Translations under genes and position numbers: made by a program
Assembly: GCA_024229275.1 (NCBI GenBank)
Contig: JAAESQ010000908.1
Coordinates: 1-64,000, forward strand
Direction of reading: 5' to 3'
Source: a bacterium
Lineage (GTDB): Bacteria > Acidobacteriota > Thermoanaerobaculia > Thermoanaerobaculales > Sulfomarinibacteraceae
Length of the DNA: 64,000 nt
Shown here: piece after piece, positions 627-27,971 of the stretch
How the letters are laid out: each line of letters opens with the position of its first letter
How positions within the stretch are numbered: position 1 is the first letter of the stretch
Notes under the pieces: model-generated
The model's database searches: none
What the model saw: the letters and a program-made list of their open reading frames with translations, nothing else
Told to the model about the DNA's origin: nothing

Positions 627-850
627 AGGCCAATCTGGGACGAGGCAGGGAGACGATGGAATGCCCTCAGTTCCTCCTGGAAATTCTTGAGGGGGTCGTA
701 GTAGAAGGGAGCTTCATGCTCCACGAGCCACGACTTGGCGGGGTAGTCGATCAGGAGCAGCAGGCCCTGGACATAGGGAGTCTCCAGGAGATGCTTCTGT
801 TCGAGGAGGTCGGTGTAGGTCGCCTCTTGCGTCTCGTCGTCGTCACCCAT
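623..850 (-). CDS. Hypothetical early mini-protein (array member B)
   Basis: 75-aa ORF; start codon 6 nt downstream of a -10 hexamer. Confidence 0.75.
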   Translation of the reverse strand: MGDDDETQEATYTDLLEQKHLLETPYVQGLLLLIDYPAKSWLVEHEAPFYYDPLKNFQEELRAFHRLPASSQIGL

Positions 851-885
851 GCGTATAGGGTACGCATGCTTGCCGTATTTGTCAA
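848..885 (-). promoter_or_regulatory. Leftward promoter TTGACA-N17-TACCCT-N6-ATG with embedded ATGCTTGCCGTA (866-877)
   Basis: Minus strand reads TTGACAAATACGGCAAGCATGCGTACCCTATACGCATG. Confidence 0.75.
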
Positions 886-1007
886 CCCCCTACGGCGGCT
901 TTTATGGCCTCAGCGTTCGGCAGTTTTCCCGACTTCTTGGCAGCTTTGGGCTTCGGCTTCGAGACTGCCTTCTTGGCCTTCTTGGCGGCTTTCTTCTTGG
1001 CGGACAT
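882..1007 (-). CDS. 41-aa Lys/Ala/Pro-rich histone-H1-like peptide (MSAKKKAAKKAKKAVSKPKPKAAKKSGKLPNAEAIKAAVGG)
   Basis: Hand translation, below track length cutoff; ATGA overlap with ORF 1007..1240. Confidence 0.7.
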   Translation of the reverse strand: MSAKKKAAKKAKKAVSKPKPKAAKKSGKLPNAEAIKAAVGG

Positions 1008-1240
1008 CACAGTCTCCACATAGTTGGGCTCACTCCTCCAGTGTACCACTGCCATTTCACCGACCGTAGTTTAGGTGACCTCATCCCGGCGTCCACGACG
1101 AAGTTGGTGATGGCCTGCATGAGCTTGTCGGTGAACTCCGTGCGGAGCATGGGGTCCTCGATGGCTCCATTCTTTGGAGGAGGAGTGAAGACGATGAACT
1201 GGAAGACGTGGTCCCAGACCGGGTCGCCTTCTTCATTCAT
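1007..1240 (-). CDS. Hypothetical mini-protein (array member C)
   Basis: 77-aa ORF, overlapping neighbours. Confidence 0.7.
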   Translation of the reverse strand: MNEEGDPVWDHVFQFIVFTPPPKNGAIEDPMLRTEFTDKLMQAITNFVVDAGMRSPKLRSVKWQWYTGGVSPTMWRL

Positions 1241-1427
1241 TGGGAATCCCTGTGTGAAGTTCGATTGCAGCTTGGAGGGTGAGGTTGAACAACGGAGACG
1301 GAATCAACGGACCGCCATCGACAAACTCCCCGAAACAGATGTGGGAGACGTTGTACCAGATGTAGTGCTGGTGGTCCCCCACGGCGATGATGTCTTCAGC
1401 GCTGGCGGGCTGGCGGTCAATGGTCAT
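1233..1427 (-). CDS. Hypothetical mini-protein (array member D, MTIDRQPASAED...)
   Basis: Internal start of track ORF 1233..1550, trimmed to fit upstream gene. Confidence 0.6.
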   Translation of the reverse strand: MTIDRQPASAEDIIAVGDHQHYIWYNVSHICFGEFVDGGPLIPSPLFNLTLQAAIELHTGIPNE

Positions 1428-1665
1428 TCGTGGACTCCCAGGTGTTGAGGGCGTCCCATACGAGTCCAGAGATCCGTCGGCCAAGCTGAAAGGTTCCATC
1501 GGGATCGTACTCGGTCTTGTCCATGTCGCTCTCGGAGGGGTAGAGAGCAAGGAAGCAGATGTTGTCGAAGAGAGTCTGGCGGTCTGAGGTTGATTCCTGG
1601 AGTATGTGGAGACCGCTGGTGGTCTTGATTCCTCTGGGAGGCTCTCCCATTTCGATGTCCTTCAT
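1417..1665 (-). CDS. Hypothetical mini-protein (array member E, MKDIEMGEPPRG...LFDNICFLAL...VWDALNTWEST)
   Basis: Internal start of ORF 1417..1716; ATGA overlap at 1662-1665. Confidence 0.65.
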   Translation of the reverse strand: MKDIEMGEPPRGIKTTSGLHILQESTSDRQTLFDNICFLALYPSESDMDKTEYDPDGTFQLGRRISGLVWDALNTWESTNDH

Positions 1666-1934
1666 CGGGTGTCCTCGATGATGTAGACGTCCTGGTCGAG
1701 AGAGGGGAAGCCCCACTGGTCGTGGTCGAGATCCTGGAGGTCGAGGAACTGGTTGGCGGCGATGCGGAGAAGCTGTTGGATGTGATTGCCGTCGTGGCCG
1801 GCGTCGGTCTCAGCCCCCCAGTTTTCGACATCCTGATCGGAGTCCGCATTGAAGAGGAGGAGGTTCAGGTGGAGCCAGGGAGTGATGAAGCGGCCGACCG
1901 CCATTGCCTCTCTCATTGGATCGTAGATGTTCAC
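1662..1934 (-). CDS. Hypothetical mini-protein (array member F, VNIYDPMREAMAVG...)
   Basis: GTG start; overlapping neighbours. Confidence 0.6.
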   Translation of the reverse strand: MNIYDPMREAMAVGRFITPWLHLNLLLFNADSDQDVENWGAETDAGHDGNHIQQLLRIAANQFLDLQDLDHDQWGFPSLDQDVYIIEDTR

Positions 1935-2119
1935 CAGCGTTTCCTGCTTCCGGAGCGGCCGATGTGGTAGTGGTGGCCGAAGGCGCAGCGGTACTTGGTG
2001 AGGAAGCGTCCTCGGTGCTTCTTCTTCATGACGGTGATGGCCTCCTCGGCCAGTTCGACGGTCTTGTAGCACACCTTGCCGGTGCAGGCGTTGCGGCGAA
2101 TTCTGCGCCTGCTGCTCAT
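1931..2119 (-). CDS. Small zinc-finger-like protein (ACTGKVCYKTVELAEEAITVMKKKHRGRFLTKYRCAFGHHYHIG)
   Basis: Resembles small phage proteins of the TGK-x-x-Y...YRCxxxxxWHIG type; ATGA overlap. Confidence 0.65.
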   Translation of the reverse strand: MSSRRRIRRNACTGKVCYKTVELAEEAITVMKKKHRGRFLTKYRCAFGHHYHIGRSGSRKRW

Positions 2120-2340
2120 GTCCAGGGGACGTCCTTCCAGAAGCCCTTGAAGGTGCGGTTCAGGGGGGAGGCGATGCAGGTGTTCCAGACCTTGGACCTG
2201 ATGTTGTGGTGATACTGGCCGCAGGCCAGGACAGCGATGTGGAGGAAGAACTTCTGCTCGGGTTGGGAGCGGAAGTGGGGATTGACTCTGTCTAGGTTGT
2301 CTGTGTGGTCTGTGTCGAAGATGTGGCTGCTGGGGATCAA
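2116..2340 (-). CDS. Hypothetical mini-protein (array member H)
   Basis: TTG start overlapping upstream stop as TTGA (2337-2340). Confidence 0.5.
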   Translation of the reverse strand: MIPSSHIFDTDHTDNLDRVNPHFRSQPEQKFFLHIAVLACGQYHHNIRSKVWNTCIASPLNRTFKGFWKDVPWT

Positions 2341-2624
2341 AGGGTCCTTCCGCAGGCACGGCAGTATTCGCCTTCTTTGTAGATGCCCTGGCAGAGGAGG
2401 CAGGCTGGGTCTTCGCCCCAGGCGACGAGGGCTTCGTGGAGGTGGATGGAGATGCATCCTGGGAGGGGGTTGAAGCGGTTGAGGGGTTTGGAGATGGAGG
2501 CACCGAGGCAGAGGAAGGAGAGCATCGCCCACTGGGAGTAGGGAGCTGGGGAACCGAGGTCGGGGTCGATGGGGGTCTTCATGACAGCCTCTGGTGGCTC
2601 TTGAAGATGGTTCCAGGAGGACAT
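2337..2624 (-). CDS. Hypothetical mini-protein with C-terminal CxxC...CxxC knuckle (array member I)
   Basis: MSSWNHLQ...PACLLCQGIYKEGEYCRACGRTL. Confidence 0.6.
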   Translation of the reverse strand: MSSWNHLQEPPEAVMKTPIDPDLGSPAPYSQWAMLSFLCLGASISKPLNRFNPLPGCISIHLHEALVAWGEDPACLLCQGIYKEGEYCRACGRTL

Positions 2625-2658
2625 TAGATGGCGATGCCTTTGATGGTGGTGGCTGGCA

Positions 2659-2841
2659 TCAGAGCTTCCAGTCTCCGATGGCGATCCACATGTAGCGCCT
2701 GAACTGCGTGTCGATGTTCTCGTTCTTGGTGGTGGGACGGACACCAGTGAGAAGGAAGTGGACTCCGATGAGGTGGGCCACTTCTCCGTTGAGGCGGATG
2801 TTGGAGGCGTGGACGGAGGAGTGGAGTTCGGAGCGGATCAT
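2659..2841 (-). CDS. Hypothetical mini-protein (array member J)
   Basis: 60-aa ORF; ATGA overlap with 2838..3062. Confidence 0.65.
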   Translation of the reverse strand: MIRSELHSSVHASNIRLNGEVAHLIGVHFLLTGVRPTTKNENIDTQFRRYMWIAIGDWKL

Positions 2842-3062
2842 GGGAGGAGTTCCTCGATGGACTCGACGGCGTCCCAGAGGAGGTTGTAGGTGCCGTTGGC
2901 GAGCTTACAGGGACCAGTGATTTCTTCGCCTGGGCGCTCGTACATGAAGTCCTGGTTGGGGTCATTGCGGGAGGAGCGGTTGAGGAGCAGGTAGGCGAAG
3001 TTGTCGAAGAGGTAGTAGCCCTGATTGAGTTCATCGAGGTTCATGAGGTGGTCGTCGTTCAT
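2838..3062 (-). CDS. Hypothetical mini-protein (array member K, ...YYLFDNFAYLLL...LLWDAVESIEELLP)
   Basis: Internal start of ORF 2838..3587; adjoins the stop of 3062..3229. Confidence 0.65.
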   Translation of the reverse strand: MNDDHLMNLDELNQGYYLFDNFAYLLLNRSSRNDPNQDFMYERPGEEITGPCKLANGTYNLLWDAVESIEELLP

Positions 3063-3229
3063 CAGGCGGGGGGTCCAGGAGGATTCCAGAGGCGCTCCAG
3101 GCTCACGATGGCGTTCCAGATGGAGTCTTCGGTGCCTGTCTCCCATGCAGTGCAGCCGAGGAGCATTTCGAGATGTTCGTAGACTGCGCCTGCGGAGTCC
3201 CAAGCAGGGGCTGAGGAGTGTGGGTTCAT
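3062..3229 (-). CDS. Hypothetical mini-protein (array member L, MNPHSSAPAWDS...SIWNAIVSLERLW)
   Basis: Start codon 6 nt after -10 TACAAT. Confidence 0.65.
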   Translation of the reverse strand: MNPHSSAPAWDSAGAVYEHLEMLLGCTAWETGTEDSIWNAIVSLERLWNPPGPPA

Positions 3230-3268
3230 GGGTAGATTGTAGGGGGTGCTTGGTGCTATGGCAAGCAT
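3227..3268 (-). promoter_or_regulatory. Leftward promoter TTGCCA-N17-TACAAT-N6-ATG overlapping ATGCTTGCCATA
   Basis: Minus strand ATGCTTGCCATAGCACCAAGCACCCCCTACAATCTACCCATG. Confidence 0.7.
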
Positions 3269-3294
3269 GTTTTGAAAGTGGTTGTGGGGCAGAG

Positions 3295-3474
3295 CTACGA
3301 AGGGTTTGGCGGGTCGTGGAGGTCGAGGAGATCGGCAACACCCTGCCAGAAGGATGGAGTGCTGGACATGCGGAAGATGGGATTGGAGTAGATGTCTGGA
3401 GGGTCGAGGTCGAGAGAAAAGAGCAGGTAGAGAACGTGGTAGCGAGCGTAGCGGTAGTCTCCTGCTGAGGACAT
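3295..3474 (-). CDS. 59-aa mini-protein (array member M, MSSAGDYRYARYHVLYLLFSLDLDPPDIYSNPIFRMSSTPSFWQGVADLLDLHDPPNPS)
   Basis: Hand translation; just below the track cutoff; directly downstream of an ATGCTTGCCGTA site (3477-3488). Confidence 0.6.
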   Translation of the reverse strand: MSSAGDYRYARYHVLYLLFSLDLDPPDIYSNPIFRMSSTPSFWQGVADLLDLHDPPNPS

Positions 3475-3568
3475 GCTACGGCAAGCATATCATGGAAAGT
3501 GGTGCGGTTGGGGGAGGTAGTAGCTATTTGCACCGGAAATCGGACTCCGGTTCCAGGGGCGGGGGGAC

Positions 3569-3599
3569 AAAAAAAGGGCACCCCCACGTGGGGGTGCCC
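3569..3599 (-). terminator. Rho-independent terminator for leftward transcription
   Basis: Perfect 24-nt palindrome GGGCACCCCCACGTGGGGGTGCCC (3576-3599) followed on the minus strand by 7 T. Confidence 0.9.
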
Positions 3600-3605
3600 A
3601 GTGCG

Positions 3606-3866
3606 CTAGACGTTGCGCTTCGCGGCGTCGTTCAGGACGGCGCGGAGTGTGTCGGCCTTGCCGCGACCGATGCGGAGGGGCTTGGCGCCCTCAGGCTCGA
3701 CATGGAACAGCAGCCCGTACTTTTCGGTCTGGACGATGGCCCACGTGATGGGCCGGCCGGCTGCCGACGTGGTCTCGAACGGCCCCTCGACCACGGTGTC
3801 ACCCTTGGCGCTGGCCTTCGCCTTCTTCGCTTCGGGCTTGGGGAGACTGAATGTCATCTTGCTCAT
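3606..3866 (-). CDS. Hypothetical protein (MSKMTFSLPKPEAKKAK...)
   Basis: Track ORF 3606..3878; internal ATG preceded by GGAGGTCGCA. Confidence 0.75.
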   Translation of the reverse strand: MSKMTFSLPKPEAKKAKASAKGDTVVEGPFETTSAAGRPITWAIVQTEKYGLLFHVEPEGAKPLRIGRGKADTLRAVLNDAAKRNV

Positions 3867-4049
3867 TGCGACCTCCATACCGAAGGGGTTAGATCATTCC
3901 CTCGGCACTCTCCCCTCGATCGCCGTCGCCTGAATCACCAGATCCTTGGCTATATAAGGAGGTATATAAGAAGCGCACCCCCTATTGTGACTCGCGTGAA
4001 TATCGACACGGGTTGTGACCGAGATGTTTGTAGCAGCCGCTAAAAACAA

Positions 4050-4559
4050 TTATGTACTGTCACCATCATCTTGGGTGATGACGGCAGGCAGGGCAGGCAG
4101 GGCAGCCCCGACCTCAACAGCACGTGAGTCAGTGAGTTGTGCGATGCGTGCGTCGATCTGCTTGAGCAAACTGTTACGGTCGAAGTCCACAATGAGTTTG
4201 TCGCTTAGCATGCCGTGGATCTGGGCATTGGTGATGATCGCCTTCATCCGATCCTTATGGTCTTTGTCCCTAACGATCTCTGCCAGATGCATGACCAGTT
4301 CATCAGGCTTCACCCCACACATCTCACGCCACAGAACTCCACACGCTTCAGCCACATCCGGGAACTTCTTCGTCAACTTCGGTCCTTGCGTGTTGGGGTG
4401 AGCATACCCCACTAGCTTCGCTGCCTTCGTGGCATCCAACGCAGTCTCAGTAGCAAACTTCTCAAAGAAGCCCCGTACCTTTCCAGGTGGAGTCTTCTTG
4501 TACTTCGCCTTCAGCAGCGCCAGCCACTCCGGATCATGGCCATTCCCGTTCCCCTGCAT
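4050..4559 (-). CDS. Candidate terminase small subunit (HTH-like N-terminus)
   Basis: FATETALDATKAAKLVGYAHPNTQGPKLTKKFPDV resembles the small-terminase HTH pattern (...ATxAAxxAGY...P.V). Confidence 0.45.
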   Translation of the reverse strand: MQGNGNGHDPEWLALLKAKYKKTPPGKVRGFFEKFATETALDATKAAKLVGYAHPNTQGPKLTKKFPDVAEACGVLWREMCGVKPDELVMHLAEIVRDKDHKDRMKAIITNAQIHGMLSDKLIVDFDRNSLLKQIDARIAQLTDSRAVEVGAALPALPAVITQDDGDST

Positions 4560-4673
4560 ATCCCCATTCTACTACTTCACAACGTGACGCCTCAGGCCCA
4601 CCTCCCTCATTCCGGGGAAACCCTGGCCGGCGATCGAGGGGAAGGCAGCCAGCCCGGCAGAGAGGAGAAAAGC

Positions 4674-4874
4674 ATGTTTGGCGAGCCCATGGACTTTCCA
4701 GTACACGACCCAGAGCAGATCATCACCCAGTTCTACTCCCTGATCCACAACGACTTACTCAGCATGAACTTCCTCTGCTCAGAGGAGGGAGAGGCCCTCA
4801 CTCGCTTCGAGAACGACCTCATACCACACCGTCTATCCCAACCAAAAGGAGGCCAATCATGGCCAAAAGCCTGA
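4674..4874 (+). CDS. Hypothetical early protein
   Basis: MFGEPMDFPVHDPEQ...; 66 aa; purine-rich GAGGAG upstream. Confidence 0.6.
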   Translation: MFGEPMDFPVHDPEQIITQFYSLIHNDLLSMNFLCSEEGEALTRFENDLIPHRLSQPKGGQSWPKA

Positions 4875-5242
4875 AGCACTGCACCCACATCCACACAACC
4901 AAGGAGGCCGAGGAAGCCTGTAACCAGGAGGCAGAAGACGCAATCCTCCGCTCCGAACACTTCAACCAGTGGCTGGAGATCGACCAAGAAGACGACTTCC
5001 AAGAAGGCGAGTTCGACTCCTTCGCCTACTACATGGGCGATGCCTACCGCATCGACACCGACGACCTCAAAGCATCAGAGGAGGCCCTCTGCCACTTCCT
5101 CATCCACGAACCCACCACATACTCTGAGCCTCTGGGCATCCGCTCAGCCCACATCCCCGTCATGGCCCTCCGTCACGACGGCATCGGCTCCGCTCTCGCC
5201 CGAGGCATCAGCTCCTGGATCAACAGAGAGAATGGCGAGTAG
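4859..5242 (+). CDS. Hypothetical acidic early protein
   Basis: MAKSLKHCTHIHTTKEAEEAC...; AAGGAGG upstream of ATG. Confidence 0.65.
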   Translation: MAKSLKHCTHIHTTKEAEEACNQEAEDAILRSEHFNQWLEIDQEDDFQEGEFDSFAYYMGDAYRIDTDDLKASEEALCHFLIHEPTTYSEPLGIRSAHIPVMALRHDGIGSALARGISSWINRENGE

Positions 5243-5513
5243 CCACTGGCTGGACACCGTCCATCTCACCAAAGCCGCCCTCCGCATGTGCCGAGAAAGG
5301 AGCCGTATGGCCACACCCTACAGCCCCCACACCACCGTAAGGTACACAGGAGACACCGACTTCGATGACATCCTCACTGACGACTCAGCCTCCTTCTGGC
5401 TCAAGAGAGCCATCACCGAAGCCCGTCACCGTGACCCCATCGACGCCGCCAACGACGCCGAATTCCTCTGCTCCCTCCTCACATCCCGTGCTGCCAAAAT
5501 CCTCACGGAGTAG
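5232..5513 (+). CDS. Hypothetical early protein
   Basis: MASSHWLDTVHLTK... Confidence 0.6.
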   Translation: MASSHWLDTVHLTKAALRMCRERSRMATPYSPHTTVRYTGDTDFDDILTDDSASFWLKRAITEARHRDPIDAANDAEFLCSLLTSRAAKILTE

Positions 5514-5675
5514 GCTCCCTGACAGCTTCCTCTCTTCAGTCAGTCACAACTCCAGGCTCACATGGCTCATCTGGACAGACTGGCCCTCCATCCTGCCCCT
5601 TGAACTCTGGATACCCACCAACCGGGCTGCTGCATCTTTCGCAAGGGTCCAAGGACTCCTAGGGGAGCCACCACC

Positions 5676-5996
5676 ATGAAGGCACCCCGGTACGACAGCA
5701 ACCTCAACCCCACCGTCAACCACGACCTTGGCATCAACGCCACGGTCCTCGTCTTCGGCTCATTCCCTCCACCACCCAAAGGCGTCCACAAGACCGGCAC
5801 AGCATCCCTGTGCTGGAGGCTCTTCATCGACCAGATCACTGCGCTCTATCCCATTAACCAGGAGGCCCACAAGATGGCCATCACCCGCTACACACCCGAC
5901 CCCCGCACTGGCTCTCTCACCAATGGCACCGTCCAGCACGACTACCAGGAGCCCAAGGCACCCCGGAAGCGCAAGAAGGCAGCCGCCAAGAAGTGA
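5676..5996 (+). CDS. Hypothetical protein with basic C-terminus
   Basis: ends PRKRKKAAAKK. Confidence 0.6.
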   Translation: MKAPRYDSNLNPTVNHDLGINATVLVFGSFPPPPKGVHKTGTASLCWRLFIDQITALYPINQEAHKMAITRYTPDPRTGSLTNGTVQHDYQEPKAPRKRKKAAAKK

Positions 5997-6047
5997 TCTG
6001 GCTCATCTTCACCATGCCCTGGTTCCTCAACCACAAGGAGTGACCCC

Positions 6048-6311
6048 ATGAAGAACTGCTGGTCTGACTGTGCCAGATGCAGGGACCACCCAAACGAAAC
6101 AGGTTGGATAGACGAAAACGGCCAGCATTGGGACGTTCATCCACCCGACCCAGATCCCGAAGATCCTGATCCTCTGCACCGCATCACCCAAGTGCTGCAC
6201 CTGATCTCCCCTGACATCACCCGCTGGAACCACTCAGAGTGGCTATCAGACGCAGAGACCACAGCCGCCATGAATGCCATCCACCGTTTCTCCGAGAGAG
6301 ACAACGAGTGA
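6048..6311 (+). CDS. Hypothetical protein
   Basis: AAGGAG upstream of ATG. Confidence 0.65.
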   Translation: MKNCWSDCARCRDHPNETGWIDENGQHWDVHPPDPDPEDPDPLHRITQVLHLISPDITRWNHSEWLSDAETTAAMNAIHRFSERDNE

Positions 6312-6467
6312 CCCAACATCTGGTATGCCTGCCGTAAGCCCTACACAGTAAATAGTAGTGCTAACAATCCTGCTTGCCATGGTATAACTACCCTGGCTGT
6401 AGCGAGTTCCGAACGAATCCTACAGGGGGATAAACCCATAAAACCCCCTATCTACGAGAAAGGCCCC

Positions 6468-6683
6468 ATGAACACTGAGGACTACAACCTCATGCTCGAC
6501 ACCCTTAGAGGCATGGGCTTGGCTCTTCAAAAGCAGGTAGACAACCTGCAAGCCGAGAACCGCAACATCCGCCAACGCCTCACTTGCGTGGAGTCCAAGC
6601 TCATCCGCAATGGGCTTCACGACCGTCCAACCGAGGCTGACACCGACACTGTCAGCCTCCCCAAAGTCACACTGGAGGACTAA
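6468..6683 (+). CDS. Coiled-coil small protein
   Basis: GLALQKQVDNLQAENRNIRQRLTCVESK. Confidence 0.65.
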   Translation: MNTEDYNLMLDTLRGMGLALQKQVDNLQAENRNIRQRLTCVESKLIRNGLHDRPTEADTDTVSLPKVTLED

Positions 6684-6684
6684 C

Positions 6685-7293
6685 TTGAAGCACGCCAACG
6701 AACTCACACTCCGAGAGATCGAGCAGAAGCTCTCGGATTACGAAGACCTCAAGGACAAGCTGGAAGCCATCAAGGCCATCTGCACCGACGGCATCGTGAC
6801 CAGCAAGCCCATCACCAAGGATCTGACAGGCATCGTCCTGAAGCGCAAGCCCAAGGAGTCCTTCGCCACCTACAACCGCCGCAAGGCCATCGCTGCCGGC
6901 ATTCCCCCCAAGCGCAAGCACCGCCCCAAGAAGGCCAAGAGGAAGTCCAACGGCAAGGGCACCAAGCAGCAGTGCGAGAACCCCCTCTGCCGTGAGGTCA
7001 GTGGCCGAGCATCCCGCAACTTCATCAGCCACGGCACCAAGTTCTGCTGCCGAGAGTGCGGAGTCTTTTTGTCCAACCGTCTCCGTGGCTACGCCGTCAT
7101 GGTGGTGGACGGCCACAACACCCAAGCCAAGGCGTACACCCGGAAGTACCCCTTCATCCTGAACACCAATCAGGCCAAGCGTGTTCGTGGTCTGATCGAC
7201 TCCGTCCAGAAGCTCAAGAACAAGCAGCTTTCCAAGGACAAGGCCACCAAGAAGGGCACCAAGATCTTCTCCAACACCCCCAGTGCTCACTGA
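6685..7293 (+). CDS. Basic putative zinc-binding protein
   Basis: TTG start; CENPLCR...KFCCRECG; Lys/Arg-rich. Confidence 0.65.
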   Translation: MKHANELTLREIEQKLSDYEDLKDKLEAIKAICTDGIVTSKPITKDLTGIVLKRKPKESFATYNRRKAIAAGIPPKRKHRPKKAKRKSNGKGTKQQCENPLCREVSGRASRNFISHGTKFCCRECGVFLSNRLRGYAVMVVDGHNTQAKAYTRKYPFILNTNQAKRVRGLIDSVQKLKNKQLSKDKATKKGTKIFSNTPSAH

Positions 7294-7473
7294 GAACCTC
7301 GGCGCACGAAGTCACCAAGCTCTAAACCTCCAGGTATTGGCCATCGGGCTGACACCAAACTCGATGCCCACTGAGCATTACGGAGGGTTAGGGCACTGTC
7401 ACCGAGTATTCGCTAAGTCCGTCAACCGGTTCATCGACGTAGCTTTCCCAGACAAGAAGGAGCCAACCAAAGT

Positions 7474-16141: not shown

Positions 16142-16357
16142 GGCCATGCTTGCCACCACAAGGTGTGTGGTTCCAAGAAAAAATCTGTTGAAAACAAAGG
16201 ACTTAAAAGTAGGTACCGCGATTTGGAACCAGTATTTTTAGAGGGTGGTTCCAACAACGTAAGTATGCATGGATGAAAGGAATGTTAACCGAAGTCGGAA
16301 GACTTCGGAACCCCATAGATATTATATGGGGGTGGTTCCAATAGGGAGTTCCAAACA
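16142..16357 (+). promoter_or_regulatory. Structured non-coding region with GGTTCCAA repeats and hairpins
   Basis: No supported ORF; three GTGGTTCCAA copies, inverted TTGGAACC, CCGAAGTC-GGAA-GACTTCGG stem-loop. Confidence 0.6.
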
Positions 16358-16543
16358 ATGAGATTCGTGGACGAGGTTGACCGCGTGTTGGGATGGGCAG
16401 ACGGCAGATTCGCCAGGGTCTTGGAAAGTGAGGCTGAGACCTGCCTGAACCTGGACAACCTGATCTTTGGAGAACGCTACGTGGTGTGGCCAGATGAACG
16501 GTGGTGGCCGAACATAGAGGAACTGGACAGGAAGGACGCCTGA
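16358..16543 (+). CDS. Hypothetical protein
   Basis: 61-aa ORF. Confidence 0.6.
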   Translation: MRFVDEVDRVLGWADGRFARVLESEAETCLNLDNLIFGERYVVWPDERWWPNIEELDRKDA

Positions 16544-16608: not shown

Positions 16609-16773
16609 CTACCGCTGGTCCTTCCAACGAGCCAGAGCCGCTACACGGGCAATTTCGCTTCTTCTTCGCTTGCTGAGCTTCTTGGCTCTCGCCTTCCCAC
16701 CTGCCTTCGAGACTCTCTTCCGGGTCTCAGTGTCCAGATGATCGGAGCCTGCTGATTCCGCTTGACTTCCCAT
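16609..16773 (-). CDS. 54-aa basic protein, candidate DNA-binding regulator (MGSQAESAGSDHLDTETRKRVSKAGGKARAKKLSKRRRSEIARVAALARWKDQR)
   Basis: Hand translation; matches the recurrent KARAxxLSxxxRSEIARxAAxARW small-protein pattern; opposite to surrounding genes. Confidence 0.75.
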   Translation of the reverse strand: MGSQAESAGSDHLDTETRKRVSKAGGKARAKKLSKRRRSEIARVAALARWKDQR

Positions 16774-16800
16774 GACGGCAAGCATACCATGTCCATCATG
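16762..16800 (+). promoter_or_regulatory. Promoter TTGACT-N17-TACCAT-N7-ATG with embedded GACGGCAAGCAT (16774-16785)
   Basis: Direct reading; same layout as the 848-885 promoter. Confidence 0.75.
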
Positions 16801-16896
16801 GAGAAGCTACTGAATCTTGCAACGGCCATCGGGGTCACCATCACCATCTGCTCAGTGGTGGCCAGCATCGGAGTCATCCTGCTGGCGTTCATCTAG
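16798..16896 (+). CDS. 32-aa single-TM peptide (MEKLLNLATAIGVTITICSVVASIGVILLAFI)
   Basis: Hand translation; start immediately follows promoter. Confidence 0.6.
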   Translation: MEKLLNLATAIGVTITICSVVASIGVILLAFI

Positions 16897-19608: not shown

Positions 19609-19859
19609 GCGACCATCGGCCCCTGGAGACGCTGGCGCGGGAATGGCTGAGTCACACCGATCCTGATGAGGATCTACCTGTTACTCTCACCGCCCTCCTC
19701 CGCAGCCGAGACGAGCGTGCGCTGCGGATCGTGGATGAGTTCCAATCCCGCTGCGACAAAATGTGGAAAGCCAACGTTGGCGAGACGCACGACTTGAACA
19801 AAGGGGCATCCATAGCCTGCGACGAGATCAAGCGCCGCCTGGAGGCCGAGGATGAATAG
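19605..19859 (+). CDS. Hypothetical protein
   Basis: GTG start overlapping prior stop. Confidence 0.55.
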   Translation: MSDHRPLETLAREWLSHTDPDEDLPVTLTALLRSRDERALRIVDEFQSRCDKMWKANVGETHDLNKGASIACDEIKRRLEAEDE

Positions 19860-20658: not shown

Positions 20659-20723
20659 GATTCTGGTTTTGGCTCTCCGTTTTCTGCCTTTTAATGCTTG
20701 CCATCTCCGTCACAACCACATAG
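20637..20723 (+). CDS. 28-aa TM micro-ORF (MLGRHTLRFWFWLSVFCLLMLAISVTTT)
   Basis: Overlaps end of previous gene; strong hydrophobic segment. Confidence 0.4.
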   Translation: MLGRHTLRFWFWLSVFCLLMLAISVTTT

Positions 20724-20726
20724 ACT
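20694..20726 (+). promoter_or_regulatory. Promoter TTGCCA-N17-TAGACT overlapping ATGCTTGCCATC
   Basis: Direct reading; GAGGGGG SD then ATG at 20736. Confidence 0.6.
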
Positions 20727-20735
20727 GAGGGGGTT

Positions 20736-21218
20736 ATGAAGAAGCTACTGGACCAGTTCAAGAACATCTTGGGAGTCGGATGGACAGCAGGAGACTACCC
20801 GAACCATGAGTCTCAACAGGAACGCCTCGGCTTCGAGCAGGAGAAGGACTACTACTCCGACCCCTGGCACCACCACAACATTGGTGGCGCTCCTGGTTGG
20901 GTCCAGCAGCAGCACGAGGCACTCCGAAGGCAGCAGCAGGATCTACAGAACAAGAACAAGCAGGACGCCTACAACTACATGCAGCACGTCCAGAAGCAGT
21001 GCTTTCCTCCGCAGCAGGTGCAGCAGGCGTCACCCTTCGGTGGTATCGTGCCGACGCGGTCGGAAGGTGAGCTTGGCACCTTCACTGTCCACGCCCTAGT
21101 GTTGCTCTTCGGAGACCACCACGAGATCATTGCCAAGCATCTGGTTGAACTCCAGAAGCAGCATGAGGGTGACGCCCTGAGCGAGCTTTGGAAGTTTGCC
21201 AATGCCTACACTCCTTGA
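20736..21218 (+). CDS. Hypothetical Gln-rich protein
   Basis: 160-aa ORF with SD. Confidence 0.65.
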   Translation: MKKLLDQFKNILGVGWTAGDYPNHESQQERLGFEQEKDYYSDPWHHHNIGGAPGWVQQQHEALRRQQQDLQNKNKQDAYNYMQHVQKQCFPPQQVQQASPFGGIVPTRSEGELGTFTVHALVLLFGDHHEIIAKHLVELQKQHEGDALSELWKFANAYTP

Positions 21219-21357
21219 CGAACTGCAAAAGACCGAGGAGGAGGCTCCTCGTGTACCGCTGTGTGAACTTCCATGGTGTGTCACTCCCGTGCAAGACGCT
21301 GGACCCTTCTGCGCCCACCACAAGCGTGTCTACGACGTCTGGGTGAAGATCCCTTGA
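21202..21357 (+). CDS. 51-aa Cys/His protein
   Basis: CELPWCVTPVQDAGPFCAHH; not in track. Confidence 0.6.
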   Translation: MPTLLDELQKTEEEAPRVPLCELPWCVTPVQDAGPFCAHHKRVYDVWVKIP

Positions 21358-21635
21358 CCGAAGATGAAGAACTGGCTGCCGAAGAAGAACGGGCACATCT
21401 GGAATGGGTGAGGCAGCAGAATGAGTACGACATGCAACTCCGGGACTTCCAGGATACCTGCTACGAGGTCTCCGAACAGATCGACTACCTGCTTCAGGGC
21501 TACATGCCGCAGGCCATGATGACCCCACTGATGCGTAAATGTGTGGAAGCCATGACCGTGCAGCACATCTATCAGTCGTACCCACAAATGGAGGAGCTAC
21601 GTGACCGAGACGAGTCTGACGAGATCCCCTTCTGA
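21354..21635 (+). CDS. Hypothetical acidic protein
   Basis: TTG start, TTGA overlap. Confidence 0.6.
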   Translation: MTEDEELAAEEERAHLEWVRQQNEYDMQLRDFQDTCYEVSEQIDYLLQGYMPQAMMTPLMRKCVEAMTVQHIYQSYPQMEELRDRDESDEIPF

Positions 21636-22251
21636 CGATTTCACCGAGGAGCAGATCAACGACATCCTCCAGCAAGGTGACATCTCAAACCTGGACGTAA
21701 CGAAGCGCAGTCGGTTCCTCTACCGACTAGCTGAGAAGCTCAAGCTCGACCCCTTCGCCCGACCCTTCGACCTGATCCACGTCAAGAAGCCCGACGGTTC
21801 CAAGAAGCTCATCATCTACGCCAACAAGTCGGCGTCTGACCAGATCCGGGAGCGTGACAACCTCTCTGTTGAATGCTTGGAGGAAGGCCCCCTCGTAATC
21901 GGTGATCACGTGGACGACAGCATCTACATCTTCCGCGTGAAGATCTCCAACCCAGAAGGACGCACTGAGTTCAATGTTGGTGCTGTCTCTCTGGCTGGCC
22001 TCGACGGAGAAGACAAGGCCAACGCCATCATGAAGGGCTGGACGAAGGCATCCCGTCGAGCCACTCTAGGCTTTGCTGGTCTTGGATTCCCCGATGAGTC
22101 CGAGGTTGGGAGCATCCCTGGCACCGTGACGGTGACCCCTGGCGAGGGCAAGCCAGTGATCAACACGCCGCCCGCAGTCGAAGCTCAGGTCACGTCGTCC
22201 CTACCCCGTGCCTCCTCAAGCAGCAAGCCCCCCGTCCGAGTCACCCCATGA
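21601..22251 (+). CDS. RecT-like single-strand annealing protein candidate
   Basis: LDPFARPFDLIHVKK...NAIMKGWTKASRRATLGFAGLGFPDESEV resembles the (K)xKRRATLxxxGLGxxDE motif of phage annealing proteins. Confidence 0.5.
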   Translation: MTETSLTRSPSDDFTEEQINDILQQGDISNLDVTKRSRFLYRLAEKLKLDPFARPFDLIHVKKPDGSKKLIIYANKSASDQIRERDNLSVECLEEGPLVIGDHVDDSIYIFRVKISNPEGRTEFNVGAVSLAGLDGEDKANAIMKGWTKASRRATLGFAGLGFPDESEVGSIPGTVTVTPGEGKPVINTPPAVEAQVTSSLPRASSSSKPPVRVTP

Positions 22252-22529
22252 CGGAGACGAAGTGGGACGCCTTCTCGCACTGGGAGAAGGGAGGCTACGG
22301 TTTCAAATGGGGGACCGGTGACGAGATCAGGTTCCTTGATCGTGTAGGAGAGCATCGCCAGAAGAACAGGGCTCTCCTTGTGTCCGACAGGATCCATCTG
22401 CTCAACCAGTACACGGAGGGTATGAAGCTCCGTTCCAACTGGGGAGACATGGATCCTGAAGTCATCACGTCTCACATCCGTAATCTCATCCACCACTACG
22501 AAGCCATGTCGAAAGAGAAAGGAAGTTAG
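22248..22529 (+). CDS. Hypothetical protein
   Basis: 93-aa ORF. Confidence 0.6.
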   Translation: MTETKWDAFSHWEKGGYGFKWGTGDEIRFLDRVGEHRQKNRALLVSDRIHLLNQYTEGMKLRSNWGDMDPEVITSHIRNLIHHYEAMSKEKGS

Positions 22530-22531
22530 CT

Positions 22532-23194
22532 TTGCCTAACATCAACAAGCTGAATCTGTCGGACGAGCCACTGCCTCTCAACATCCAGGCCATGCCCTCT
22601 GGGCTTGGGTCCAGACCACAGACACCGCAGCCGGGGATCTACCGCTTCCGTCTCCCCGAGGCCCCGGCTATCGAGAACGTGTTCGACACACAGGAAGCCG
22701 ACGACACCCAGATCCTGCTGGCCGTCTTCAACAACGACGGCATGCTGTACAACATCAGCCTCAAGCAGAACTACACGGCCCGGATCAGCAACCGGTTCCG
22801 TGAGATCAAGGTCACCAACCCCGAGACGAAGGAGAAGGAGCCTCTGCTCATCTCCGACTTCGGCATGCTGCTCAAGGCACTGAACGCCGTGCCCGACCGC
22901 GTGTCGAACCGTGCGCTGGCCACTGCTCTCGTCCAGGCAGCCGGCACCGAGTTCATCGCGGAACACACCCTCACTGCCACCTGCAACAAGAAGAACCCCA
23001 TCTGGAAGCAGGGCAAGACGGTCGCCGGCAAGTTTGGTTGTGGCCGGCAGTACGCCGTCGAGGGCTGGAAGTCCGAGAAGTCCGAGAGACTTCAGCTTCC
23101 CGTCGTTGAGGGGCGTGTCGCGCTGCGCTTCACGTGCCCATGCGATGCCGAGCTTCGTTCCTGGGGTCAGCTTCAGGGATTCCGAAGTGTCTAG
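22532..23194 (+). CDS. Hypothetical protein, possible SSB-like role by context
   Basis: TTG start; next to annealing-protein candidate. Confidence 0.5.
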   Translation: MPNINKLNLSDEPLPLNIQAMPSGLGSRPQTPQPGIYRFRLPEAPAIENVFDTQEADDTQILLAVFNNDGMLYNISLKQNYTARISNRFREIKVTNPETKEKEPLLISDFGMLLKALNAVPDRVSNRALATALVQAAGTEFIAEHTLTATCNKKNPIWKQGKTVAGKFGCGRQYAVEGWKSEKSERLQLPVVEGRVALRFTCPCDAELRSWGQLQGFRSV

Positions 23195-23406
23195 TGGAGC
23201 AAAATACAAAGGAGGTCTGTTTGGGGGGAGTGGTGTGGGTGTGCCCGGCACCGTCCCCCCTGCATCAGGAACTAGCGGACCGCCTTCTGGAGCAGGAAGG
23301 GGGACCATCACGCGAGGCGCTGTCCTCCATTCTGGCGTTCGCAGCAAGCCGAGGTTTCCAGGAGGGGTTGCTGGCGGTCGAGCGATTCATAGTGGAGAAG
23401 ACTTGA
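23191..23406 (+). CDS. Hypothetical protein
   Basis: GTG start overlap. Confidence 0.5.
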   Translation, partial: LVEQNTKEVCLGGVVWVCPAPSPLHQELADRLLEQEGGPSREALSSILAFAASRGFQEGLLAVERFIVEKT

Positions 23407-23645
23407 TCGAATACACCATGGCCGAACTGATCTACACCCATGGCACTGCGTCCTTCCTGATGTACCACATCGGCGAGATCCCCAACTACTCCGGTGCCCC
23501 AGAGGAGAAGCAGCTTATCCGTACTCAACCCTTCCGCCCTGAACCAGCCGTCAACAACAAGGACATGATCCAGCGAAACCTCTACACCCTCTGCCTCAAC
23601 ATGCTTCCCGAGATGGGAGACGATGGAGGCCCAAGTGCAGCATAG
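23403..23645 (+). CDS. Hypothetical protein
   Basis: TTG start, TTGA overlap. Confidence 0.6.
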   Translation: MIEYTMAELIYTHGTASFLMYHIGEIPNYSGAPEEKQLIRTQPFRPEPAVNNKDMIQRNLYTLCLNMLPEMGDDGGPSAA

Positions 23646-23654
23646 GAGCCCGTC

Positions 23655-23837
23655 ATGGAACAACCGCAGCCGTTGTACTTCATCTGCCAGCAAGTCGATC
23701 GCATGAAGCGTGACGCCGACAGGCTCAACGGAGACGACCCCAGGAAAACCCTCATGGCCATCGGTGAGGCAGCCGAGTCTGTGTCCCACGAGATCGAACA
23801 CTTCCTGAAGTGGGGACCGAATGCACCACCCGGGTAG
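23655..23837 (+). CDS. Hypothetical protein
   Basis: 60-aa ORF. Confidence 0.55.
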   Translation: MEQPQPLYFICQQVDRMKRDADRLNGDDPRKTLMAIGEAAESVSHEIEHFLKWGPNAPPG

Positions 23838-24060
23838 TCTCCAGGTCGTCAGAGGGTTCAGAGGGCTGCGTCCTTGGGACGATGTTGACGACCCCTCCAG
23901 GGAACTGGGGAAGAGTTACTGCCCCACGAACATCGAGAGTCTCGTCATTGGTGAGACTCTCTTTCGCCCTCCCAACACGTGGGAGACCGTCACGCCGTTG
24001 ACCACCAAGGTGAGGAACATTCTTGACAGGACAGGGGACAGCTTCCGTCAAGCCTCGTGA
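23821..24060 (+). CDS. Hypothetical protein
   Basis: 79-aa ORF. Confidence 0.5.
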   Translation: MHHPGSLQVVRGFRGLRPWDDVDDPSRELGKSYCPTNIESLVIGETLFRPPNTWETVTPLTTKVRNILDRTGDSFRQAS

Positions 24061-25483
24061 GTGTAATGGTTGTGTCCTGCGGCAGAAGGGAGATGGGTTC
24101 GCCCTCCCCGAGCAGGCCGAATCTGTTATCACTCTGGTGGGCGAAGCATTGGGAGAAGAAGAGGTCGTCTACTCCCGACCGTTCGTTGGCCCTGCGGGAG
24201 AACAACTCGACCGTGCCCTGACCAAGGTTGGACTGCCCAGAGGTTCTGTCACTATCGGAAACGCCGTGAACTGCCGGCCTCCCAACAACTGGCTGACCGG
24301 CGCACCTTGGGAACACGCTTCCCTCAACCACTGCCGGGTCCACCGCCGGAAGTTCTACTCCCCCCAGGTCAGGGTGTACGTCACCCTCGGCTCTGTGGCC
24401 ACCAAGACCGTCCTCTCCGACCACGGCTACCCCTACGAGGGGAAGCTCAACAACTGGCACTCCACCGTCATCAAGCTGGACGAGAACCAGTACCTCATCC
24501 CCACCTTCCACCCCTCCTACCTCATGCAGGGGAACCAGAAGCTGTTCAACGCCCAATGCTACGCCCTCCGTCTGGCCATGGAGGTCGCCTCCTTCGGATA
24601 CACACCAGATCCTCTGGACCTCAAGGTCGATCCTCCACCCGACAAGTTCGAAGCTGATTTCGTCAGCAAGCTCGGAGGCATCGAGGAACACAGCGCCTGG
24701 ATGGCCGTGGACATCGAGACCTACACGTCCATGGGTGAAGCCGAAGACGATCTCACCTACGCTCTCGGTGACATCACCCGCATCAACTTCTCGGTGGATC
24801 CCGATGTGGGATGGACCGTACCGTGGGAGAACCGCTACCTCCCTCTAATCCAGAAGTGCCTGGAGACTCCTCACGCCAAGATCTTCTGGAACGAACGGTA
24901 CGACGTGCCCATCCTGAAACGAAACGGAATGAAGATCAACGGGGTGGTGGTCGATGCGATGCAAGGCTGGCACATGCTCCAACCGAATCTCCCAATGGGA
25001 CTCGGTTTTGTTGCTCCGTTCTATTGCAAAGTTGGGCCATGGAAGCATCTCTCATCTACGGCTCCTGGCCGGTATGCCGCCATCGACGCAGCCGCCACTC
25101 TGCGATGTGCATATGGCATCGGAGATGATCTCGCAAATGAAGGCCGGTGGGACACCTTCCACAAGTACATGACGACCCTCGACCGGAAGGTGCTGCACCC
25201 TGCGGAGGAGGTCGGCCTCCTCATCGACAGAAAAGAAGTCGAGAAGCTCCAGGAGATCCTGTACGAGCAGAGCGAAGCTGCCGAAGAGAAGATCAAGAAG
25301 CAGATCCCTGACTCTGCCCTTCCCTTGGAAGGTGGTTGGAAACGAGACCCCAAGGACAAGTGGCCTGGAGCTTTCATGCGAAAAGTAGAAGAGACCGTCA
25401 CCTGCTGCACAGATTGTGGGGAGACCGATGTCACGACCCGGCACAAATGCGAACCTCCGAAAGAAGAAGGAAGCCCTCCGTGA
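24023..25483 (+). CDS. Family-4-like uracil-DNA glycosylase fused to PolA-type 3'-5' exonuclease and part of the thumb
   Basis: UDG: CNGC, GEALGEEE, PFVGPAGEQLD, NCRPPNN...C, HPSYL; Exo: AVDIETYT, NERYD, YAAIDAA. Confidence 0.8.
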   Translation: MTGQGTASVKPRECNGCVLRQKGDGFALPEQAESVITLVGEALGEEEVVYSRPFVGPAGEQLDRALTKVGLPRGSVTIGNAVNCRPPNNWLTGAPWEHASLNHCRVHRRKFYSPQVRVYVTLGSVATKTVLSDHGYPYEGKLNNWHSTVIKLDENQYLIPTFHPSYLMQGNQKLFNAQCYALRLAMEVASFGYTPDPLDLKVDPPPDKFEADFVSKLGGIEEHSAWMAVDIETYTSMGEAEDDLTYALGDITRINFSVDPDVGWTVPWENRYLPLIQKCLETPHAKIFWNERYDVPILKRNGMKINGVVVDAMQGWHMLQPNLPMGLGFVAPFYCKVGPWKHLSSTAPGRYAAIDAAATLRCAYGIGDDLANEGRWDTFHKYMTTLDRKVLHPAEEVGLLIDRKEVEKLQEILYEQSEAAEEKIKKQIPDSALPLEGGWKRDPKDKWPGAFMRKVEETVTCCTDCGETDVTTRHKCEPPKEEGSPP

Positions 25484-25487
25484 GGCC

Positions 25488-25718
25488 ATGGAAGATCCTC
25501 AGATCCACGTGGTCAAGACTCTTCAGGCCGGTGTGGCGTGGGCCAATGAACTTGGCAAGGAACTCGGAAAGACGGATGCCGCCGACTGGCCCAAGGAGAA
25601 GATGGTTGTTGCAGCACTTACGTACGCTGCCGCAATGGCCTCTGAAACTTCCCTGGATGAAGACTCCTGGCTCGATCTTGCGATCATGGCATTCCGAGGG
25701 GTCAGCGTTGGACCTTAA
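25488..25718 (+). CDS. Hypothetical protein inside the polymerase split
   Basis: MEDPQIHVVKTL... Confidence 0.6.
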   Translation: MEDPQIHVVKTLQAGVAWANELGKELGKTDAADWPKEKMVVAALTYAAAMASETSLDEDSWLDLAIMAFRGVSVGP

Positions 25719-25890
25719 CGAAGTCAAGCCCATCTATGCCGACTGGTACACCCACATAGTCAAGCTGACTTTTGGTTCCATCCAGGAAGCGGTACTGATT
25801 CCGTACCACCAGCCAGAGAATCCCTTCGAGACTGCTCTCCAAGATCTCCTCGACAACCACTGGTGGGATGATGAAACCGCAGATATTTAG
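25708..25890 (+). CDS. Hypothetical protein inside the polymerase split
   Basis: TTG start, overlapping neighbours. Confidence 0.55.
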   Translation: MDLNEVKPIYADWYTHIVKLTFGSIQEAVLIPYHQPENPFETALQDLLDNHWWDDETADI

Positions 25891-26116
25891 AGCCACCAGG
25901 ATACGAAGAGCTATGAAGATTGAAACGGTGACGGTGTCCATGATCAAGTACGCACCAGGATCTCTCCCTGGAAGTTGGGGGGATCCCTACCTTCTCGACT
26001 ACGAGAACCTGATCTGGATTACTGGTGTGCCTCAATGCTCCAACGAGTCTTCCATCCAGATACAGGATGCTCTCCACAACATTCTCGATACCGTGGCTAG
26101 AACATGGCAACGCTAG
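25868..26116 (+). CDS. Hypothetical protein inside the polymerase split
   Basis: 82-aa ORF overlapping both neighbours. Confidence 0.55.
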   Translation: MMKPQIFRATRIRRAMKIETVTVSMIKYAPGSLPGSWGDPYLLDYENLIWITGVPQCSNESSIQIQDALHNILDTVARTWQR

Positions 26117-27357
26117 TTCGTAGACCGGCGAAGGTCACCCGCTGGTTCGTCCACGGGGAGTTCAACCCTGGCAGCCCGAAGCAGATCCGTGCGCTCATGG
26201 CTGCCTTCGGTGAGACCAGCCGACCGGGCAAACACTCCAAGAGCGGGAAGCCCTCTACAGACCGCAAGGTCATGGACAGACTGGCCACCAGACATCAGGT
26301 GTTCCGGGACATCCAGGACTGGAAGGACGTCAAGAAGCTCGACAGCACCTACGCCACTGGCCTCACGGCTCACGCCGACGACGACGACAGGATCCATGCC
26401 TCCTTCACACACAAGCCGTACACCATGCGGCTGGCCTGTATCAATCCCAACCTCCAGAACATCCCTCAGGACGACGAGGAGGACTCCTTTGCCAAGCAAT
26501 TCCGACGATGCATCATTGCTCAACCCGGATGCCGTCTCGTCAGCGCGGACTTTGCTGGCATTGAAGCTGTACAGACAGGTTGGTTTTCTGGCGACCGGGA
26601 TTACTATCGACTGGCTCGACTGGGCGTGCATGCGTACCTCGTATCTCACCGTCTCGATCGCCCAGTCAATCTGTCGTGGAGCGATGAGGATCTCGGAGCA
26701 GCACTATCCGAAGTGAAGGCGAAGTTCCACGACCGTCCCATCTACAAGCAGTTGAAGCGGGTGGTCCATCGGACCAACTATGGGTCCGGTCCGTACGGGA
26801 TGCACATGGACGACCCGCACATGTTCCCCACTGTTCAATCAGCCGAGGACCTCCAGGACTACTACTACACGCTCGTGCCGAAGCTGGCGAAGTGGCACTC
26901 CCAGGTCCGTACCCTGGCCAACGCCCAAGGATTCCTGGGAGGGGACGACCACCCCTACAAGTTCAAGGCGTGGTTCTGGGACGTCATGCACTACGAGCGC
27001 CGCCGAGATCGGATGGTCCGTGGGTCTGACTGGAACAAGGTTGTTGCCTACTACCCTCAGTCCAGCTCAGCAGGAAATCTGTTCGACACCATGCTCATGC
27101 TGATGGACAAGGAGGGGGACTGCTACGTGGGTGACCTGTTCTACGGGAAGACTCCCATCCGCGCCCTCATCCACGACGAGATCTTGGCTGAGGTCCCCGA
27201 GAACAAGCTCGACATCTTCTACGAACGCTGTGCCAAGGCCATGACCTACCCTGTCTTCTCACAGGCCCTCCCCAAGAACTGGGAACTCGGTGAGTACATG
27301 CAGCACCGCGCCGAGATGAAGGTCGGCCAGAACTGGGCCGACATGGAGGCCGTGTGA
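26104..27357 (+). CDS. polA-like: DNA polymerase family A, polymerase domain only
   Basis: FNPGSPKQ, KLDSTY, motif A SADFAGIE, motif B KQLKRVVHRTNYGSGPYG, motif C IHDEI. Confidence 0.9.
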   Translation: MATLVRRPAKVTRWFVHGEFNPGSPKQIRALMAAFGETSRPGKHSKSGKPSTDRKVMDRLATRHQVFRDIQDWKDVKKLDSTYATGLTAHADDDDRIHASFTHKPYTMRLACINPNLQNIPQDDEEDSFAKQFRRCIIAQPGCRLVSADFAGIEAVQTGWFSGDRDYYRLARLGVHAYLVSHRLDRPVNLSWSDEDLGAALSEVKAKFHDRPIYKQLKRVVHRTNYGSGPYGMHMDDPHMFPTVQSAEDLQDYYYTLVPKLAKWHSQVRTLANAQGFLGGDDHPYKFKAWFWDVMHYERRRDRMVRGSDWNKVVAYYPQSSSAGNLFDTMLMLMDKEGDCYVGDLFYGKTPIRALIHDEILAEVPENKLDIFYERCAKAMTYPVFSQALPKNWELGEYMQHRAEMKVGQNWADMEAV

Positions 27358-27650
27358 ACGCGAAGGCCAAGGGCGCACGGAGCGAACGGAAGGTCAGGGC
27401 TCAGCTTGAGGCTGATGGCTGGCACGTCGTGAAGTCAGGAGGTTCTCTGGGACTGTGGGACCTTGTTGCTCTGCACCCGACGGGCAAGGTGCGGCTAGTT
27501 CAGGTGAAGACGAACCGCAAACCTCCCAAGAAAGAGATGAAGAAGCTGAGCGAGTTCGCCGAACGTTGGTGGGGCACAGAGTGTCTGATAGCTGTGGTAT
27601 ACGACCGGAACCCCACGAAGTGGACTATTCTGAATCCATATGACAACTGA
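27354..27650 (+). CDS. Hjc-like PD-(D/E)XK nuclease (Holliday junction resolvase-like)
   Basis: GARSERKVRAQLEADGWHVVKSGGSLGLWDLVAL...VRLVQVKTNR. Confidence 0.75.
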   Translation: MNAKAKGARSERKVRAQLEADGWHVVKSGGSLGLWDLVALHPTGKVRLVQVKTNRKPPKKEMKKLSEFAERWWGTECLIAVVYDRNPTKWTILNPYDN

Positions 27651-27740
27651 TGTACTTGATATGGTAAAGTTTATCGTATTGTTCGTTCGGACATCCTTGA
27701 AAACAAAGAACTTACGCCAGCACTGACAAGGAGCGTCATA

Positions 27741-27947
27741 TTGAATACATCACTGGTCATCAAGGAGATCCCAGAAGTTGACCGGCCTGATCTTCCACCC
27801 GGCCCCTCCTGGAAGTGTACCGAGTGTGGAGCCACCCTCCGGATGAACGAGCATCACTCTGCTGGCCGACACGTGGTTCTCTTCGTGAATCAGAGGCCCC
27901 GCCTCTACGTCGAGCCCAGAACGAAGACTCTACTTGACAGAAGCTGA
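27741..27947 (+). CDS. Small Cys protein
   Basis: KCTECGATLRM. Confidence 0.6.
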   Translation: MNTSLVIKEIPEVDRPDLPPGPSWKCTECGATLRMNEHHSAGRHVVLFVNQRPRLYVEPRTKTLLDRS

Positions 27948-27971
27948 TGCTTGCCGTAGATTGAGAACATG
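27934..27971 (+). promoter_or_regulatory. Promoter TTGACA-N17-TAGATT-N6-ATG with embedded ATGCTTGCCGTA (27947-27958)
   Basis: Sequence ttgacagaagctgatgcttgccgtagattgagaacatg. Confidence 0.85.

What the first reader, a model, noticed from the sequence alone, without database searches (positions are those of the whole stretch)
848..27971. Recurrent intergenic 12-mer ATGCTTGCCRTA: candidate phage operator regulon
Seven ATGCTTGCC copies lie in or at the edge of intergenic or 5' regions: 866-877, about 3257-3268, 3477-3488, about 16148, 16774-16785, about 20694 and 27947-27958. Near-copies occur at 6325-6336 (ATGCCTGCCGTA) and 6371 (CTGCTTGCCATG). By base composition a 9-mer is expected about 0.5 times on both strands of 64 kb. 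Copies occur in both orientations, and several sit inside the -35/-10 spacer or overlap a promoter element. This fits an asymmetric operator (as in mycobacteriophage stoperators), but with a different sequence.
Basis: partly seen in the sequence, partly recalled or inferred. Interest (0 to 1): 0.85.

Follow-up and report, generated by a model that had tools for sequence, protein, structure and literature searches.

The report
Phage operator on all strong early promoters
A short DNA word is repeated in the gaps between the genes of an uncultured phage and sits on every strong early promoter we could predict, in this phage and in its close relatives, so it is most likely the docking site of one master switch protein, which we could not identify.

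Summary
ATGCTTGCC occurs 7 times in the window (0.46 expected), all in gene gaps, and is the commonest intergenic 9-mer of the circular 66.9-kb phage contig; no copy is coding. The near-copies at 6325 and 6370 are real too. A motif-blind sigma70 scan ranks six promoters far above the rest; five overlap an exact copy. The word lies in the -35/-10 spacer (866, 16785, 27947), forms the -35 (3268, 20694) or abuts an extended -10 (6370). Four of these promoters appear leaderless (ATG 6-7 nt after the -10). Related phage contigs keep the word at matching promoters (866, 3488/3268, 6370, 16146, 16785) while flanks have diverged, and the strong late promoter in the relatives lacks it. The word is at background density in the rest of the bin and in other phages. 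An operator regulon is well supported; repression is inferred from variable position and both orientations. It is not a stoperator system by the features tested: few sites, mostly on promoter cores, no strict orientation. It works more like the dispersed operators of P1 C1, without their sequence. No regulator, integrase or helix-turn-helix repressor was recognised; two candidates (g14, g22) were inconclusive.

The parts
866..877 (+). operator copy ATGCTTGCCGTA, reversed in the spacer of a leftward promoter
   Evidence: same place in relatives G061 and G062
857..885 (-). sigma70-like promoter TTGACA-N17-TACCCT, ATG of ORF 623-850 six nt after the -10 (leaderless)
   Evidence: relatives have TTGAC[AT]-N17-TACAAT with the same spacer element
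623..850 (-). 75-aa ORF g2 of unknown function, first gene after that promoter
3257..3268 (-). operator copy ATGCTTGCCATA; its TTGCCA is the -35; a partial inverted half (ACCAAGCAC) follows after 5 bp
   Evidence: complete inverted half GGCAAGCAC in G063 and G064
3236..3264 (-). best-scoring promoter of the contig, TTGCCA-N17-TACAAT, ATG at 3229 six nt after the -10
3062..3229 (-). 55-aa leaderless ORF
3477..3488 (-). operator copy ATGCTTGCCGTA at the position of the single site of the relatives; the -10 present there (TAYAAT) reads GAGACT here
3570..3601 (-). intrinsic terminator (GC hairpin plus T run) between g14 and operator 3488
3606..3866 (-). g14, 86-aa basic protein in front of the operators; candidate regulator, unproven
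   Evidence: AlphaFold pLDDT 65 and no fold match
6325..6336 (+). operator near-copy ATGCCTGCCGTA, no clear promoter on it
6370..6381 (+). operator copy CTGCTTGCCATG abutting extended -10 TGG-TATAAC (6383-6388)
   Evidence: TGCTTGCCATGGTATAA invariant in C907, G061, G063 and G064
6685..7293 (+). g22, basic zinc-finger-like protein downstream of the 6370 promoter; candidate regulator, weak
   Evidence: homologue in G064 only; AlphaFold pLDDT 61, no fold match
16146..16157 (+). operator copy ATGCTTGCCACC at the edge of an iteron-like non-coding stretch
   Evidence: G064 has a copy at the matching place and orientation, 19216(+)
16774..16785 (-). operator copy ATGCTTGCCGTC, reversed in the spacer of a rightward promoter
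   Evidence: kept in G064 at 19852(-) despite a 3-bp shift relative to the -35
16762..16790 (+). promoter TTGACT-N17-TACCAT, ATG 16798 seven nt after the -10
16798..16896 (+). 32-aa hydrophobic (probably membrane) peptide, similar peptide in G064
20694..20705 (+). operator copy ATGCTTGCCATC; its TTGCCA is the -35
20698..20726 (+). promoter TTGCCA-N17-TAGACT in front of ORF 20736-21218
27947..27958 (+). operator copy ATGCTTGCCGTA in the promoter spacer
27934..27962 (+). promoter TTGACA-N17-TAGATT, ATG 27969 six nt after the -10
27969..28226 (+). 85-aa leaderless ORF with an N-terminal CxxC pair

Best explanation
ATGCTTGCCRT is the operator of one sequence-specific DNA-binding regulator, most likely phage-encoded, which occupies the -35/-10 region of the strong host-sigma70 early promoters of this phage and blocks RNA polymerase. 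One protein would thus switch off the leftward and rightward early genes together, either to keep them silent in a quiescent state or to end early transcription in the lytic cycle. Shown by computation: enrichment, intergenic placement, overlap with predicted promoters, conservation in relatives. Inferred: that a protein binds the word, that it represses, and that the phage encodes it.
For: Seven exact copies against 0.46 expected; 7 intergenic and 0 coding. Five of the six best promoters found without using the motif overlap a copy; placing seven sites at random in gaps never gave 5 in 200000 trials, and for promoters whose -35 lies outside the motif, 3 observed, P about 0.0002. Conserved islands at orthologous promoters in G061, G062, G063 and G064 with diverged flanks. 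At 16785/19852 the copy stays in the spacer despite a 3-bp shift against the -35. Position and orientation relative to the -10 vary, which suits steric blocking better than activation. The late promoter of G061, G062, G063 and G064 lacks the word. Background density in the rest of the bin and in other phages. The 17-mer TGCTTGCCATGGTATAA occurs exactly in three of 2.9 million viral contigs, all relatives found here through terminase.
Against: No binding protein found: no HTH, S24 or integrase family among the called proteins scanned. Three copies (3488, 6325, 16146) are on no recognisable promoter. Two promoters use TTGCCA of the motif itself as the -35, so their overlap is partly built in. 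Promoters are consensus predictions for an unknown host. No expression data.
Confidence: 0.68

Rival explanations
1. The word is an activator box or the recognition element of a phage-modified RNA polymerase: it marks a promoter class instead of repressing it.
For: All strong early promoters carry it; at 3268 and 20694 it supplies the -35; seven of nine copies point along local transcription.
Against: The distance from the motif to the -10 ranges from overlapping by one base to 18 bp and the orientation flips; several promoters have good TTGAC(A/T) and -10 hexamers of their own, so need no activator.
Confidence: 0.15
2. A host-encoded regulator binds the word and the phage has adopted its sites, so phage genes follow a host signal.
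For: No phage repressor was recognised.
Against: The word is at background density in the rest of the bin, and inverted pairs are no commoner than the reversed control. The bin may not be the true host; no spacer-like match was found in the two 20-kb stretches searched.
Confidence: 0.1
3. A true stoperator system: a repressor that stops elongating polymerase at sites in short gaps, as in cluster A mycobacteriophages.
For: Asymmetric word in gaps; three copies off promoters (3488, 6325, 16146); seven of nine point along transcription.
Against: About nine sites instead of 20-30; six on promoter cores; two conserved reversed sites; no match to the L5 13-mer above chance; no repressor relative recognised.
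Confidence: 0.05
4. Chance or codon-usage artefact.
For: Short word, and the bin average is about twice that of the reversed word.
Against: Zero coding copies, ten-fold excess, positional conservation.
Confidence: 0.02

Closest known systems
Phage P1 C1 repressor operators (22 dispersed asymmetric 17-bp sites, ATTGCTCTAATAAATTT; PMC8546580)
   Same: One asymmetric word dispersed over the genome; in P1 the C1 repressor inhibits promoters next to its operators.
   Different: Different sequence (0 matches at up to 3 mismatches); about nine sites; no C1-like protein recognised; life style unknown.
Cluster A mycobacteriophage operators and stoperators (L5, Bxb1; PMC6550527, PMC9283540)
   Same: Short asymmetric word in intergenic regions, some copies on early promoters.
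   Different: Sequence, number, promoter-centred placement and mixed orientation differ; no repressor relative recognised.
Lambda CI/Cro operators
   Same: Operators overlap -35/-10 of early promoters.
   Different: Lambda operators are symmetric and clustered at two loci; here mostly single half-sites at separate promoters (from general knowledge).

Membership tests
Cluster A stoperator system | Consensus of the L5 type, GGTGGMTGTCAAG (recalled; it varies between subclusters) | tested here: not met
   5 matches at up to 2 mismatches, 5.07 expected
Cluster A stoperator system | 20-30 sites, most not promoter-associated | tested here: not met
   Nine sites, six on predicted promoters (definition)
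Cluster A stoperator system | Sites oriented with transcription | tested here: not met
   Seven of nine along, two against and conserved against
Cluster A stoperator system | Repressor with N-terminal HTH and stoperator domain | tested here: inconclusive
   No such family hit in Pfam or PHROGs scans; distant homologues can be missed
P1 C1 operator regulon | Dispersed asymmetric operators, with the repressor inhibiting promoters next to them | tested here: inconclusive
   Dispersed, asymmetric and promoter-adjacent: met. The repression itself could not be tested
P1 C1 operator regulon | 17-bp C1 operator sequence | tested here: not met
P1 C1 operator regulon | C1 repressor homologue | tested here: inconclusive
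   No repressor family hit; no direct C1 comparison was run
Lambda-type symmetric operators | Palindromic operator bound by a dimer | tested here: not met
   A recognisable inverted half was seen only at 3268 (partial) and, complete, at its counterpart in G063 and G064
Any repressor regulon | A protein binds the word and lowers transcription | not testable with these tools
   needs EMSA and reporter assays

The most novel reading that the evidence does not exclude
A phage with no recognisable integrase or HTH repressor controls nearly all its early sigma70 promoters, many of them leaderless, through one asymmetric operator read by a DNA-binding protein of an undescribed family (candidates: the g14 family or the zinc-finger-like g22).
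Probability: 0.3. Interest if true: 0.6.

Novelty: new variant of a known kind. Interest (0 to 1): 0.48.

Why it matters
It gives a concrete, conserved regulatory code for a group of uncultured phages whose early genes are otherwise mostly unannotated. The word marks which small ORFs are probably really expressed (several leaderless), and it provides a probe for finding the regulator by DNA affinity or one-hybrid methods.

Tried and rejected
Regulator hunt: Pfam and PHROGs scans of most called proteins gave no repressor or integrase. g15 looked like an HTH regulator but reads as a small terminase subunit (weak phrog_51 hit; the judgement rests on the sequence pattern). AlphaFold of g14 and g22 was low confidence without fold matches. 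A wider operator family in the distant relative G066 was looked for and not found. The two bin contigs with the 12-mer outside the phage have it inside long ORFs, as expected by chance. A 35-nt, 86% match on bin contig C963 was checked as a CRISPR spacer and is not in a repeat array. Host assignment failed. The near-copy ATGCTTGCT next to the late promoter (contig 64578-64586, outside the window) is not conserved and was left out of the regulon. The word was looked for in papers; the listed hits were not about phage regulation and gave no lead.

Full report
Setting. The window is bases 1-64000 of contig C907 (67,051 bp) of an 8.65-Mb metagenomic bin. The contig ends in a 141-bp direct repeat, so it closes to a circle of 66,910 bp. 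It is a phage: terminase large subunit (phrog_38), DNA polymerase, ATPase phrog_1297 and HNH-type protein phrog_1314, and a 2,700-aa internal virion protein. Genes run leftward from 4559 round the circle to 28692 and rightward from 4674 to 28688 (my own codon-usage gene calls). No named phage in the collection is similar to the first 25 kb at DNA level.

Observation. They are not chance: 0.46 expected, none of 100 shuffles reaches 7. None lies in a called gene; the word is the most frequent intergenic 9-mer and is absent from coding sequence. The same 9-mer occurs 93 times in the remaining 8.58 Mb of the bin, about 0.7 per 64 kb, and 11 times in 1.21 Mb of other, mostly terminase-related loci.

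Promoters. I scored sigma70-like promoters over the whole circle without using the motif. Six stand out (9.4 and above; the next is 7.8). Dinucleotide shuffles give on average 0.9 at that level, at most 3. Five overlap an exact copy. In 866 and 16785 the word is reversed in the spacer, in 27947 it is forward in the spacer, and in 3268 and 20694 its TTGCCA is the -35. The sixth is the late promoter at contig 64593-64621. Site 6370 abuts an extended -10 that this scan does not score well. Random placement of seven sites in gaps never gave five overlaps in 200,000 trials; restricting to promoters whose -35 is independent of the word gives 3 observed, P about 0.0002. Four of the promoters put an ATG 6-7 nt after the -10 (850, 3229, 16798, 27969), so their messages would be leaderless.

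Conservation. Terminase relatives in IMG/VR (76-79% protein identity for the closest) include G061, G062, G063 and G064, syntenic through the early region as far as their contigs reach. The word is at matching places: 866 = G061 10819 = G062 10486, with TTGAC(A/T)-N17-TACAAT; 6370 = G061 13978 = G063 10824 = G064 10317, with TGCTTGCCATGGTATAA invariant; 16146 and 16785 = G064 19216 and 19852, same orientation and nearly the same separation (631 and 628 bp). At 19852 the copy has shifted 3 bp against the -35 but is still in the spacer. Site 3488 is the positional counterpart of the single site of the relatives: same terminator, same GGAACCGGAGTC box, same word. Its -10 (TAYAAT in relatives) reads GAGACT here, and the full promoter is found at 3268 instead. 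In G063 and G064 this site has a complete inverted second half, ATGCTTGCC-ATAAC-GGCAAGCAC; at 3268 it is partial. G066 (46% terminase identity) does not share the system beyond one exact and one near copy. The exact 17-mer from site 6370 occurs in three of 2.9 million viral contigs, the same three relatives.

Mechanism. A motif that is fixed in sequence, always in gaps, centred on -35/-10, but free in orientation and register is what a repressor that blocks RNA polymerase leaves behind; an activator or sigma-type element would sit at a fixed distance from the -10. In the relatives the strong late promoter lacks the word while the strong early promoters have it (in G061 one further hit of score 8.0, inside g36 and so probably not a promoter, also lacks it). 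This points to control of early genes as a set. Shown by computation: the word, its enrichment, its overlap with predicted promoters, its conservation. Inferred: binding, repression, a phage-encoded regulator. Not known: whether the phage is temperate. No integrase, S24 or HTH repressor family was hit, so lysogeny is unsupported and an early-gene shut-off in a lytic phage is equally possible.

Regulator. g14 (3606-3866) is a small basic protein family, followed by a terminator and directly in front of the operators in all three gene maps; the link between the C907 and the G061/G064 members rests on position and a 33-37% alignment, not on a significant BLAST hit. g22 (6685-7293) is basic with a C..C/C..C finger and lies under the 6370 promoter, but is absent from the known part of G061. 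Neither gave a confident model or fold match. The regulator is unidentified.

Known systems. The nearest functional parallel is P1 C1, with 22 asymmetric 17-bp operators dispersed over the genome (PMC8546580); the sequence differs. I therefore file this as a new variant of a known kind, the multi-operator phage regulon.

Noticed in passing
24023-27357 (+): The family A DNA polymerase is split into two ORFs (24023-25483, 26104-27357) with about 620 bp of small ORFs between; in the distant relative G066 the same stretch is one open frame. No Rfam intron was found there.
   Followed up: partly
16160-16360: Iteron-like repeats GTGGTTCCAA in both orientations in a non-coding stretch downstream of the AAA_25 helicase gene, also in G064; candidate replication origin, with an operator copy at its edge.
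   Followed up: partly
3540-3560 (-): A conserved CCTGGAACCGGAGTC box upstream of operator 3488 in C907, G061 and G064, sharing TGGAACC with the iteron-like repeats.
   Followed up: no
303-3474 (-): The leftward region holds a run of small acidic ORFs (g1, g2, g6, g7, g12, g13, ORF 3229) that look like diverged paralogues of each other.
   Followed up: no
contig C907 64051-64125 (-), L007:4051-4125: tRNA-Met (CAT) just past the window end.
   Followed up: no
28147-28488 (+): g64 carries an HEVCH metallopeptidase-like motif in a small protein downstream of operator 27947 (sequence).
   Followed up: no
L024/L025 (G066): G066 has several TTGACA-N17 promoters with the -10 TAGATT/TAAGTT preceded by CC, one with ATG 6 nt downstream, but no shared operator word was found.
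   Followed up: partly
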